NCBI GenBank assembly: GCA_903813345.2
Contig: CAIIXF020000005.1
Coordinates: 7,135,375 to 7,199,374, forward strand
Direction of reading: 5' to 3'
From: Owenia fusiformis
Taxonomy: Eukaryota > Annelida > Polychaeta > Sabellida > Oweniidae
DNA: 64,000 nucleotides
The position numbers and the translations under genes are program-made. This document shows, in pieces, positions 31,301 through 37,300 of this stretch. The stretch's first letter is position 1, and each line of letters starts with the position of its first letter. The notes under the pieces were generated by a model. The model was not told where the DNA came from and searched no databases. It was given only the letters and a program-made list of their open reading frames with translations.

Positions 31301-34300
31301 ATTTTTGAAGAGACCATATGCATGCTCCCTAAGTTATAAATAAAAAAATAGATTTCAATAAAAAATTGATTTTTGCTTATTTCTTAATTTCTATTTCAGT
31401 TTATCCTCAATGTTAGACTTGACTACAGGATCTCATGTTTGCTTTCAATTTTCAAACGTGAATTTGATGAAAATAATGTGCTGAAAACTGCAGACGGTAC
31501 GAACATACCAATTAGAGTTATGGATTATAGTTTGCCTGCACGCTAGTGGTTAATAGTTAGGCCAATACAAATTAAATGTCTATCTAGTGACACCTATCTT
31601 ATCGACCTGGAACCTCTGGTTTAATTTTCTCTTAATGCAAGTCATTCATTTTGGCATTTCTATTATTTTATCATTTTGGGGTATTATTGCAAATTAATAT
31701 TTTATTAAAGCCTTGTCATTCTTTCATTGTTTGAATAACTATTTTTTCGCTAAATTGACATTTAACTTGCATTAGCCACAGCAGTTTTATTTTGCCAGCA
31801 TTTTGAGTGATTTAACCCTTTACAGGATCTTATGGTGGTCTAATGGATATGGATGGTTTCATTGAAGTTTTGTCACTTGGGTGAAGTCAATGAATTTCCC
31901 TTTATCATGACAAATCGAGATTTGAATATATTTACTCCTTTAAAGGAGCCTTTGCTTGTATTTGCGAATGCAACTTTCGGCTGTCAGCTTCTGGATGAAG
32001 CTACTATTTTATGACCAACTCATTTGAATATGAATGGAATAGTGGCAGGTACTATTCAATGAATTGTATTCATATTTAAATGAGTTGCCCATAAAATAGC
32101 AGATTAATCCGGTAGCCGACAGGTGTTAGTTGCATTTGCGAATACAAGCGTTACGTGGAAATGTAACACATTTTGATTGACCAATCACAGGTGACAACTC
32201 TGACATGCTCGATTGAGTGTGTATAACTCATTGATATGAAATCTATATTACAGGGGTCTGTTTTTGGAACCATGATAACTTACGATTCACCTCAGATCAT
32301 TATTCACCAAAAAGTAGTCAATGTCTAGGAATCGTAAGTTATGATTGTACCATGGACCCCAGTGGAAGATTTTGAAGAATGCATTTTGGGATTTTTCTTT
32401 CTTTCTGTTAGGAATGTCAACTCCACCATGACATCCTATGTCTTTGATTCATACTACACCCACTGTATACTTTTCCAATATACCTGCAATGAACCAGTTC
32501 AGTTTACCAGCTGGTATATATATACTGGTATGTTTCCCACTATTTATATGTGTACTGGTAACGATCGAGGCATATGTGGTATATATATATGGTGGCGGGA
32601 CCTTATAGCATATATTAAAACCTGAAATCTGTATCCACAATATACGATATTTACTATAGCATCGTATTGATGTCTAAGTATAAGTTTGAACATCGCATAG
32701 TACTGTATCTGAACCCAATTTCATTCTCAAAAGCAATTTAGAGACGTGGAATTATTAACAAGATGCTTGATGCGATGTAATGATCATATGTCACGATTAT
32801 GATATGTCATTATAGATTTCAGGTTTGTGGTATTCTCTGGAGTTCTCATAAATCATTAAACATTAAACTTCTTCAACTATGTCAGTTTTTCTGTCGCCAC
32901 AAGTGCTGACATATTGTTACAGGTTCCAACTTTTTTGTGGAGAGTGTTTTCGGTGTTTGGCATTCAGCAATCGTTTAAAAAAATTTTTTGAACTTATTCA
33001 TTTCACTCCATTTTTTACATATAATTACCTAAAATAATTACAGTACATGCTCATGCCATATTATAATGTTGTACTATACAATTTAAGGCCATGGTCGAAA
33101 AAGTTTAACAATGATATAAGAGAACTCCTTGTGAATACTTTGCTACACTTGTTGTTGATTTTACATTCTAACCGTTCTTGTTGCATTTTAAAATATAACC
33201 TATCAATATTGCATAATAATACCACTATACTGGCTACAAGTGTATTTGTTTTACAGGGTGTACTATGAAAATGGAAAACATGATGTCCCATTAATTAGTA
33301 GAACACCCTGTAAAACCTTTCCAAGTTGTGCTTCCGAATTTATGATAACAATTAGAGGCCTAGAAGTTCCCCTTCAACATATTCCTATTACCATTCCCTT
33401 TATACCCTTGGGGTGTGCTACAGGGTGGTAGTTTTTGCATGCTAAAGTTTATTGGATTAGTAAGGTATAATGTATATACAGGGTGGGCCAAAAAAACCAA
33501 TACCCAACTTTAAATCAGAATGAAAATAGCTATGCTCAATATGATACATTGATTTATATATCATTTTAAAGGTAATCCATTTTCCAACAATTTGGTATAT
33601 AACACTATGTCATGAAATCAATATTAAAGTTTTATTATGCTTATTTGGGAGGCTGGGTCGGTATTTATTAGGTATCTTGATTTTAGGGAGAAAATAGTAA
33701 ATCTGCGGAATAATGTTAATTTTTTATTTCTAGAATATCATTTTGTTAGGTGAATACATGCTTGTATATTTGCATATTGTGTGACTAAACTTATTGTTTA
33801 TGAATTTTAGTGTTGTTTATTATCAATAAGTACTCAAAGGGGGTACATGTGACGAGGGTTTTATTTTCCAACAAGACATTGCCTCGTTCCATAGATCTCA
33901 GGAGACATTGGAATTCCTTTGCAAACAAGGTGTCAATTTGATTGATCTCGATGCTTGGCTACCCAACAGTATCCATGCTACATGTAATGTGTTTGATTAC
34001 CATACATGGAGCCATTTCGAGGAAATGGTACAATCAAAAGCATCCAATAAACAGCATTGATGAGCTGAAACAGAATCCTTAAGTGCTGAAATGAAATGCA
34101 ACAGAAATCTCTCAATAAGGCTATTGATGATAGATTGCGCTACAACTTGAAGCTTATTGTTGATGCAGAGGGGAGGGGGTGGGGGTATATTGAGCAATTG
34201 CGAAAAATAAATAAAGTGTAAAATGTTATTAAACAGCACTGAAATTCATAAACAATAAATTTAGTCACACAATGATGCAAATATCAATATCCAAGCATGT

Positions 34301-37300
34301 ATTCACCTAACAAAAGAATGGTTTTCTATAAATAAAAAATTAACATAATTCCGCAGATTTACTATTTTCTCCCTTAAATCTGGAAACCTTAAATAGCAAC
34401 CCGGCCTCCCAAATAAGTATTGTAACCATGGGGGAGTGGATGTGGGTTACATTACAAATCAAATTAACAGAATAAGAATATAAAATGTATTTAAAATGTA
34501 TTCCACCCTATAATCAATCAAATGATCAAAATGTTATACAAATGAGCTAAATCTCTCAACTGATCTTAATACTCAAGCTACCTAAATCACTAACTGATCT
34601 TGTACTCAAGCTACCTAAATCACTAACTGATCTTGTATTCAAGCTACCTAAATCACTAACTCACTTAAGACCAAAACCACAAATGCTTAAGGCTGTGCAC
34701 CTAGTTTGTACCCCAGAGCTGCAAATAAAAGTAATGTACAAATAGCTGTTTGTAAAGCAGGTAAAATACAATAATGAAACATACAGTTTTATGATAAACT
34801 TCTTAGTACTAAGGGCTATGGGACTTAAAGGGCCCTTATTCTGTTCCCAAGAAAACCCTTATACTGTACTTGACGTACTACATACATTTCTCTATTGAAA
34901 TTACCAAATATAAATATAATTCAGTTACTTTATGCAAAATGTACCATGAAGGTTTACAATTGAGCAATATAAATAAAATGTGGAATGTACCTTATAAAAT
35001 AAGCTATACAGTCTCTGAGTGCTAGCCATACATCTTTAGTACGCACACAGTATCTCCTGTAAAACGTGTGTACCAAGATAAGTCATATGAAATGACATAA
35101 ATGGTGGTTTTAATTGTAAATGAATAACGCACAGATGCATGAAATGAACATCACCTTATGGACAAATGTTCCAACACATTGTTCAAGTTTTACAAAGATA
35201 TTACTCAAAAGTATTTGAAATACAAAATAATATTTACATCAAATTGGAGCTAAAGTTATGGAGAATAAAATGAATACAATTGGCATAATGTTGGCATATT
35301 CTAAAGGGTAAAAAGTGACAAAAATATATGAAAATTTCTTACCATGTCTTTACAGTTCAAAATCAAGGCTAGCACTGGTGATTTGGAAAGTAAATGCAAT
35401 CAAGGTTAATCCCCTTGCATGTGCACACTGTGTGTAAATCAAAGCTATTCTCCTAGCAGGGTTTGAAAATATAATTGAAATACATAAAAATATAACTCTC
35501 CACAGTAGGGTTTGAAAATCTAAAACATCCTGTCACAGTATAATAAAACTTTACTATTGATTTCATGACATAGTGTTATATACCAAATTGTTTGAAATTG
35601 TACGACCTTTAAAATGATATGTAAGTCAATGTACCATATTGAATGTAACTATTTTTATTCTGATTTGAAGCTGGGTATTGGTTTTTTTTGGCCCACCCTG
35701 TACATTGCTTAAAAATATTCTTTCTCTCATAGGATACGTACTAATTAACCTAGGCGTATATGTGCGGACAAGATTGCAACTGCATTGCCATATATGTCTA
35801 TAGGATGAACCATTAAATATTTCTGCAAGAGGGGAGCTTACTTGTTTAACCTTTCAACTCAAAAATCTTCAAAAACAAAACTTAGGGAGTTTTAACCAAT
35901 AAAAAGGCCAATATACTCTTTTTATCAAAAAGTGGTTCATCATTCTAGAAAAGGACAAAAACAAATTTGCTTTCACTTAGAAAGCAGATAAAGTAAGCCT
36001 CTATTATATTCAGTGGCTCATTCCTTATGCCTCAGTCACATTTGATCTACAGCAACTGTACGGTGGCTGTAGCTTCTCAAAATCGAGAGAATTATAATGC
36101 AGCACAAAAAAAGGGATATGCAGTACTACTAAATGTAGATTTTCTGTATCAATTTTGTGAAGCTATGGCCACTGTACCGCCACTGTACAGCAAATATGAC
36201 TGAGGCTTTACTTATTTTTCTTGTATATTTGCATTTTGCGCATCATCACTAAGTGAAACCTTAACTCTAAATCCAATAATATTTTGCATGAATTTTTACT
36301 GATTTCAGTTCTTACTGAATGTGAGACTTGACTATAGTATTGGCACTTTACTAACTGTCTTCAAGCGAGATCTCAGAACCAGCAATGAGAATTCACAAGG
36401 TTCATTCAGGGTCTTAATCAGCTATTTTTGATGTCTGCACCTCAGTTGAACCCTTCATAGATGTATACAATGTCTATTTCAATCCATTGGTTAAAATTAC
36501 ATCTTTACTCTGCTCTCATTGGTCATGAACACAGTGAAAACCAAGCGTGTGAAGGATTATTGACGATACGGTACAAAATCATGTCCCTATTATGTTTAAT
36601 AATTTTAAAAAACATTTTGGAATTTTTCAAATTTTTGATAGTTTCTCATTAGAATTGGCATGAAAAGAAATCTTGATAATTGATTTCGTAATATTTATAT
36701 TCAGTGATTTATATGATTCACAAACCACTGGATTGAATTCACATTTGTTGTTGTATAGTGCAAAATATTTTTTTTAAAAGGTGCACTTTTTGAGGACTGG
36801 GCACTCATATTTTAGAGGATGCCACCTGAGATGTACCATGTAGTGCAGTCATGGGAGTTGCATTTATTTGTTTGCTTATATATGTAATTCCCATCACTTA
36901 AATGTATCATTTATTGCATGACAATCATTATTCTATTAGTCAGAGACAGTAATAAGGGGCTTCCAGTAGATTCATGTACAAGGGTTGATTCAAAAGTTGT
37001 GCACCATTTGTTCAAAATCTTTAATATTTGACGAAGTTGTCTCATTTTGAGTTAAAATAAGCAATAAATTCAACATTTAACATAAACCTTTGGTTGCCAT
37101 AGTAGCATGACAATTTTGAGACCAAATGGTGCAGAACTTTAAGTTTTGGATCAACTCTACAATATATTACCATTTAACAAATAGGGGTGGAATAAATAGT
37201 CGAATTCTCTGTAATCAATAGGTTTGAGGTAATATTCGACAGCAAAAATAGATAAATAGCAGCTTAAATGTTTGGTATGAGAATTTACTATTAGTTTCAG

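What the first reader, a model, noticed from the sequence alone, without database searches (positions are those of the whole stretch)
31400..36399. Mutually exclusive exon pair in the ITPR solenoid
Two homologous exons, 97 and 91 nt, encode [20 protein letters not shown] and [20 protein letters not shown] at the same position. Both are phase 0/1 with good acceptors. Including both gives TGA after seven codons of 21b; skipping both shifts the frame. The alternative changes the helix surface (RISC to SIGT, EFDE to DLRT) in the region between the IP3-binding core and the channel, so isoforms could differ in coupling. I know of mutually exclusive exons in ryanodine receptors but not of this pair in ITPR.
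Basis: partly seen in the sequence, partly recalled or inferred. Interest (0 to 1): 0.78.

Follow-up and report, generated by a model that had tools for sequence, protein, structure and literature searches.

The report
Alternative exon pair in IP3 receptor
This animal's IP3-receptor gene carries two old, related versions of one small exon, and only one of them can be used at a time without breaking the protein, so the animal probably makes two forms of a calcium-release channel that differ in the part linking the messenger sensor to the pore.

Summary
Confirmed in sequence; splicing itself could not be tested. The ITPR gene holds two homologous exons between the same neighbours: 31400-31496 (21a) and 36309-36399 (21b). 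Both enter in phase 0 and leave in phase 1. Either alone keeps the frame; both, or neither, gives an early stop at the expected splice sites. 21a matches rat IP3R1 at 23 of 24 positions, 21b at 14. A genome search found no further copy of 21b. It looks neither fresh nor freely decaying: third codon positions are near saturation (16 of 22 differ), first and second differ at 8 of 44, flanking introns share nothing above shuffles, and neutral drift fits poorly, though on few codons. By IP3R3 numbering the swapped segment starts at F977 in the central linker domain, between the wedge loop that favours extended ARM2 and loop 2, which orders where inhibited tetramers touch. Very likely a mutually exclusive pair, perhaps tuning gating or inhibition. 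What enforces the choice, beyond the frame, is unknown. Eight paper searches showed no report of such a pair in ITPR; no other animal genome was available.

The parts
30813..31021 (+).
   Evidence: AG before 30813 and GT after 31021, frame [10 protein letters not shown]...KLKIIEILQ; aligned to IP3R1 959 onward
31400..31496 (+). exon 21a, canonical version: [32 protein letters not shown] + G, phase 0 in, phase 1 out
   Evidence: 23 of 24 residues identical to rat IP3R1 980-1003 (alignment, count)
36309..36399 (+). exon 21b, alternative version: [30 protein letters not shown] + G, phase 0 in, phase 1 out
   Evidence: codon-pattern tests
38892..38943 (+). ITPR exon 22, constant downstream exon, enters in phase 1
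39328..39493 (+). ITPR exon 23, constant ([13 protein letters not shown]...AFKQ); a TAG forms across the exon 22/23 junction when both alternatives are skipped
31319..31324 (+). TGCATG, a Fox-type splicing motif (name recalled), 81 nt before 21a; post-hoc lead only
36285..36290 (+). TGCATG 24 nt before 21b, in the likely branch-point zone (inferred); post-hoc lead only
33477..35702 (.). DNA-transposon-like insert with inverted ends (TACAGGGTGGGCC ... GGCCCACCCTGTA) inside the intron between 21a and 21b; not thought to be part of the switch

Best explanation
21a and 21b are a tandem-duplicated, mutually exclusive exon pair of the ITPR gene (no second ITPR copy of this segment was found). The mRNA carries one or the other, because both or neither leads to an early stop at the expected splice sites (shown in sequence). 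21a gives the ancestral-type channel. 21b keeps the helix core (F.LNVRLDY.I..LL..FKR) but changes the R and S of LDYRIS, which are the same in the vertebrate IP3R1, IP3R2 and IP3R3 sequences seen, and makes the following loop base less acidic (shown). By homology the swapped segment lies in the central linker domain between the wedge loop, which favours the extended resting ARM2, and loop 2, which orders at contacts between inhibited tetramers (from published structures). The likeliest effect is a shift in the balance of ARM2 extension and retraction, or in inhibition and clustering, so that 21b-expressing cells have a different IP3/Ca2+ response (inferred). What makes splicing choose is unknown; frame plus decay of faulty mRNA is the only enforcement the sequence shows.
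For: Phases, frame rule and stops. Homology E = 6e-9. No further copy: a 56-aa query with 21b and its neighbours gave 4 matches at E <= 10, namely 21b, 21a, exon 22 and one weak match elsewhere (E 0.5; 4 candidates scored). Differences by codon position over 22 codons are 6, 2, 16. lnL with both copies neutral -158.7, both at omega 0.1 -150.1; 21a fixed at 0.01 with 21b neutral -153.7, with 21b at 0.2 -149.8 (coarse grid). With a neutral 21b and frozen 21a, the product of the chances of 16 or more third-position and 8 or fewer first/second-position differences is at most about 8e-4 over the seven divergences tried; at 0.5 substitutions per site the frame survives in 28% and the frame plus both splice dinucleotides in 4% of 20,000 runs. 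Flanking introns are unalike. Both donors are weak. Structural place.
Against: No RNA evidence. No orthologous 21b from another animal could be sought. The codon test has only 22-24 codons, is weaker with 24 (-173.1 against -170.8 for 21b neutral or at 0.2, 21a at 0.01), and an omega of 0.5 for 21b fits almost as well (-150.7 with 22 codons, -171.3 with 24), so the constraint may be mild. The 21b donor (AAG|GTTCAT) lacks +3R and +5G, so it may be used rarely. A shift of the exon 23 acceptor by 2 nt would leave the skip-both product open. No RNA pairing convincingly above its control explains exclusivity, and the 4.8-kb spacing and GT-AG sites at both exons speak against steric or spliceosome-type exclusion.
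Confidence: 0.77

Rival explanations
1. 21b is a relic: an old tandem exon copy no longer spliced, kept open by chance.
For: Weak donor; no transcript evidence; only 14 of 24 residues retained; the open frame alone would survive neutral drift of 0.5 substitutions per site in 28% of runs.
Against: Near-saturated third positions with few first/second-position changes, intact frame of 30 codons, both splice dinucleotides and right phases. A very recent loss of use is not excluded.
Confidence: 0.12
2. 21b is used mainly as a poison exon: when spliced together with 21a it brings a stop and lowers ITPR mRNA.
For: 21a+21b inclusion gives TGA after seven codons.
Against: A pure poison exon need not keep a homologous, constrained peptide in the right frame or a matching exit phase.
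Confidence: 0.07
3. 21b is spliced to another first or last exon and serves a different, shorter transcript.
For: Not excluded by sequence; no call tested it.
Against: Entry and exit phases fit exons 20 and 22 exactly and the peptide fits the same place in ITPR.
Confidence: 0.04

Closest known systems
Mutually exclusive exon pair of insect ryanodine receptors (second SPRY domain)
   Same: Same superfamily of Ca2+-release channels; tandem homologous exons, one used at a time; found in 21 of 26 species of PMC6026295 (section 3.4 read)
   Different: RyR, not ITPR; a SPRY domain that ITPR lacks (recalled); unrelated place in the protein
Optional exon of Tribolium IP3R (GDSLLDER, residues 922-929; PMC4204029 passages), which that paper says is conserved in human IP3R1 (the name SIII is recalled)
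   Same: Alternative splicing in the same linker-domain neighbourhood of ITPR
   Different: Cassette insert, present or absent; not a swap of homologous exons, and by residue number it lies upstream of the exon-21 segment
Tandem duplicated exon substitutions of ion channels and other genes (PMC9741552 and PMC5740500, passages)
   Same: Homologous neighbouring exons swapped for one another; ion channels enriched (PMC9741552)
   Different: ITPR is not named in the main text of either paper (0 occurrences of 'itpr' and 'inositol'; supplements not readable)

Membership tests
Tandem-duplicated mutually exclusive exons | Adjacent homologous exons of similar length | tested here: met
   97 and 91 nt, E = 6e-9
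Tandem-duplicated mutually exclusive exons | Same entry and exit phase, compatible with the same neighbours | tested here: met
   phase 0/1 for both, exon 20 to exons 22 and 23 in frame with either
Tandem-duplicated mutually exclusive exons | Both or neither gives a faulty product | tested here: met
   stop after 7 codons, or 17 wrong codons then stop; a 2-nt shifted exon 23 acceptor would leave the skip product open
Tandem-duplicated mutually exclusive exons | Both copies under coding constraint | tested here: met
   22-24 codons, no outgroup DNA, strength of constraint on 21b poorly fixed (omega 0.2 and 0.5 fit about equally)
Tandem-duplicated mutually exclusive exons | mRNAs contain exactly one of the two | not testable with these tools
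   no transcript data
Tandem-duplicated mutually exclusive exons | Physical mechanism of exclusion (steric, splice-site class, competing RNA pairing) | tested here: inconclusive
   spacing 4812 nt and GT-AG at both speak against the first two; best pairings -27.7, -30.3, -38.7 against control -27.1, -25.6, -38.1 kcal/mol, one control each
ITPR (IP3 receptor) gene | Sequence homology across the central linker domain with either exon | tested here: met
   14 distinct PDB sequences at the thresholds used, all named IP3R1, IP3R2 or IP3R3, with the 21a form and the 21b form (best E 3e-62)
Optional-insert (SIII-type) exon of ITPR | Optional in-frame insert | tested here: not met
   21b replaces 21a; inserting it after 21a or skipping both breaks the frame at the expected sites

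The most novel reading that the evidence does not exclude
The pair is an old, conserved gating switch of invertebrate IP3 receptors: by swapping the linker-domain segment between wedge loop and loop 2, one gene makes two channels that differ in ARM2 retraction, Ca2+ inhibition or tetramer clustering, doing by splicing what vertebrates do with three genes. The choice might be set by a Fox-type factor acting on the TGCATG just before 21b.
Probability: 0.22. Interest if true: 0.75.

Novelty: new member of a known kind. Interest (0 to 1): 0.52.

Why it matters
IP3 receptors shape Ca2+ signals from fertilisation to neurons, and recent structural papers (PMC10613215, PMC9663519, PMC11938044; passages seen) are working out how the linker domain and ARM2 set activation and Ca2+ inhibition. 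If both isoforms are made, nature supplies a matched pair of channels differing at 10 of 24 residues and a short tail in that region, usable as a ready-made experiment. It would also add ITPR to the ion channels that use homologous exon swaps. [quoted passage not shown]

Tried and rejected
Competing RNA pairing: 60-nt tiles of the three introns, 15,689 tile pairs, with reversed partners as the one control. The intron 20 / intron 21b-22 comparison exceeded its control (-30.3 against -25.6 kcal/mol), but that pairing would loop out both exons; the other two were close to control. Not used. Steric exclusion seemed excluded by the 4.8-kb spacing, spliceosome-type exclusion by GT-AG sites at both exons. 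TGCATG: 7 on the + strand in the three introns, where the window's rate (25 in 64,000) gives 3.0; two lie within 120 nt of the acceptors; post hoc, kept as a lead.

Relatives elsewhere: one scan each of viral contigs and genome contigs with the four-row protein alignment found none (103 and 130 pattern matches, none confirmed), as expected for an animal gene. The organism was not identified: COX1 search of the own genome empty; a ferritin exon matched 240 PDB sequences, of which 60 were shown, under names that give no species. Pfam gave no family at E <= 0.001 for the 179-aa ITPR stretch or for two transposon-like frames. Structure prediction was not run, because a spliced protein is not read letter for letter from the window.

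Self-comparison of open frames for further exon pairs: the printed output was cut, losing rows for query frames at about 50.3-52.5 kb; the ITPR exons that I located in the window lie below 40.3 kb. In the rows shown, 21a/21b was the only pair that I recognised as ITPR coding sequence; most others looked like repeats, which I judged by eye.

Papers: ten searches ran. Searches were about structure; the other eight about alternative exons. Some listings were shorter than the number of papers found: one search listed 20 of 42, 15 of 56, 15 of 18. Seen: PMC6026295 outline, passages and section 3.4; passages only of PMC4204029, PMC9741552, PMC5740500, PMC9663519, PMC8149723, PMC11938044, PMC10613215, PMC6611504, PMC8910253, PMC9204890, PMC10834251; abstract and outline of PMC6071210; all others as search listings.
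Full report
What is there. The window (C5:7135375-7199374 of a 498-Mb genome in 525 contigs) carries an IP3-receptor (ITPR) gene on the + strand. Constant exons flank the finding: 30813-31021, 38892-38943 and 39328-39493. Between them lie 21a (31400-31496) and 21b (36309-36399), each with AG before and GT after, entering in phase 0 and leaving in phase 1. Spliced singly, each gives an open frame into exons 22 and 23. Spliced together they give VLTECET and a stop. Skipped together they give 17 wrong codons and a TAG across the exon 22/23 junction. 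One exception is on record: if exon 23 were entered 2 nt further on, at 39330, the skip-both product would stay open.

Is it more than chance? Among 729 open frames of at least 25 codons on the + strand, 21a and 21b find each other with E = 6e-9 (61% over 28 residues). As DNA they score 32, against at most 23 in 200 shuffles. In the own genome a 56-aa query holding 21b and its neighbours finds four places at E <= 10: 21b itself, 21a, exon 22 and one weak match on another contig (E 0.5). A 58-aa query with 21a finds one place at E <= 0.001. Only the best candidates (four in each call) were scored, so this shows no second copy without proving absence. The RIH-domain model gives 13 matches: five on C5 in or beyond this gene, four on C8 (probably the ryanodine receptor; not tested), and four on C11 with internal stops.

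Which copy is canonical? Rat IP3R1 reads [24 protein letters not shown], which 21a matches at 23 of 24 positions and 21b at 14 of 24; 21a and 21b share 14 of 24. The R and S of LDYRIS are present in every IP3R1, IP3R2 and IP3R3 alignment printed (five in each call) and become S and G in 21b. The tail after FKR goes from net charge -3 ([12 protein letters not shown]) to -1 ([10 protein letters not shown]).

Is 21b alive? Over 22 aligned codons the two copies differ at 6 first, 2 second and 16 third positions. A coarse codon-model grid prefers constraint: lnL -150.1 with omega 0.1 on both copies, -158.7 with omega 1. With 21a fixed at omega 0.01, a neutral 21b gives -153.7, omega 0.5 gives -150.7 and omega 0.2 gives -149.8. 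With 24 codons the same contrasts are -170.6 (both 0.2) against -177.1, and -173.1, -171.3 and -170.8 for 21b at 1, 0.5 and 0.2. So neutrality fits worse, but the strength of constraint is poorly fixed on so few sites. A simpler calculation agrees: the divergence needed to explain 16 of 22 third-position changes makes 8 or fewer changes in 44 first and second positions unlikely if 21b drifted freely. The product of the two printed chances, taken as independent, with all third positions free and 21a frozen at the others, is highest near total D 0.75, at about 8e-4 among seven values tried. At 0.5 neutral substitutions per site the open frame survives in 28% of 20,000 simulated copies, and the frame with both splice dinucleotides in 4%. 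The introns next to the two exons share nothing above shuffled controls (64 and 124 of 200 shuffles reach the score), which fits an old duplication. A recent loss of use cannot be excluded.

How might exclusivity be kept? The frame rule and decay of faulty mRNA suffice in principle. The intron between the exons is 4812 nt, so steric hindrance is unlikely, and both exons have GT-AG sites. Both donors pair weakly with U1 (-4.3 and -4.1 kcal/mol, against -7.0 and -5.0 for exons 20 and 22), as might be expected if both exons need help. A search for competing intron pairings gave best energies close to the reversed-partner control in two of three comparisons; the third favours a pairing that would loop out both exons. 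TGCATG sits 24 nt before 21b and 81 nt before 21a. This was noticed after the fact, and the Fox-protein link is recalled knowledge.

What would the swap do? PDB numbering places 21a's first residue at IP3R3 F977 (KLKILEILQ starts at 968 in 6dqj) and IP3R1 980. In rat IP3R1 the helical domain is E693-L1102 and ARM2 L1103-G1567 (PMC9663519 passages). In IP3R3 the wedge loop (P897-E958) inserts between linker domain and ARM domains at rest and stabilises extended ARM2; loop 2 (P1003-M1023) orders only at the contact between inhibited tetramers, and its role in cells is not settled (PMC10613215 passages). The exon pair therefore encodes most of what joins these two loops, and its variable tail falls at the base of loop 2. 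In this animal loop 2 is much shorter than in the human and rat receptors, which weakens a direct transfer of the clustering role. The inhibitory CD Ca2+ site (R743 of the linker, E1122 and E1125 of ARM2) also bridges this domain and ARM2. Its mutation raises agonist sensitivity, though it is not needed for Ca2+ inhibition at saturating ATP (PMC11938044 passages). My inference is that 21b shifts the balance of ARM2 positions, or of inhibition and clustering. Nothing here measures that, and no coordinates were inspected.

What is known. Insect ryanodine receptors have a mutually exclusive pair in the second SPRY domain in 21 of 26 species, and the same survey states that it did not try to map such exons in IP3Rs and that they cannot be dismissed (PMC6026295 section 3.4). 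Tribolium IP3R has an optional exon at residues 922-929 (PMC4204029 passages), a cassette in the same neighbourhood. An oyster study lists four ITPR genes among differentially spliced genes, without saying in the passages seen what kind of event (PMC6611504). Full-text searches gave no paper whose listing or inspected passages report a mutually exclusive exon pair in an IP3 receptor. The library holds open-licence papers only, some listings were capped, and transcript annotations of animal genomes were out of reach.

Verdict. A real, probably old and constrained alternative exon in ITPR, most likely one of a mutually exclusive pair: a new member of a known kind, in a gene and at a place that make it useful. 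The central unknown is expression.

Noticed in passing
window 40537-41685 (-), with similar segments at about 45.0-46.6 kb and 60.7-62.0 kb: A DUF3419-family protein frame (Pfam PF11899, E 1e-39, 382 aa) lies antisense beyond ITPR exon 24 (match at 40129-40224), probably in an ITPR intron; two closely similar segments follow in the window, not themselves tested with Pfam.
   Followed up: partly
window 24113-27087 (+): Two long overlapping open frames of a retroelement-like stretch between upstream ITPR exons and exon 20; the 902-aa frame has no Pfam match at E <= 0.001. A YLDDW motif (meaning recalled) is in the other frame.
   Followed up: partly
window 33477-35702: Transposon-like insert with inverted terminal sequences and a mariner-like fragment (resemblance recalled, no Pfam match) inside the intron between 21a and 21b.
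   Followed up: partly
G000 contig C11, four places (3204752, 11819888, 36559534, 36767639): RIH-domain (PF01365) matches above the family cut-off but with stop codons inside, away from the ITPR gene on C5 and the matches on C8; perhaps broken copies.
   Followed up: no
window 28354-28977 and about 49997-60015: Arrays of repeated sequence seen in the self-comparison of open frames.
   Followed up: no
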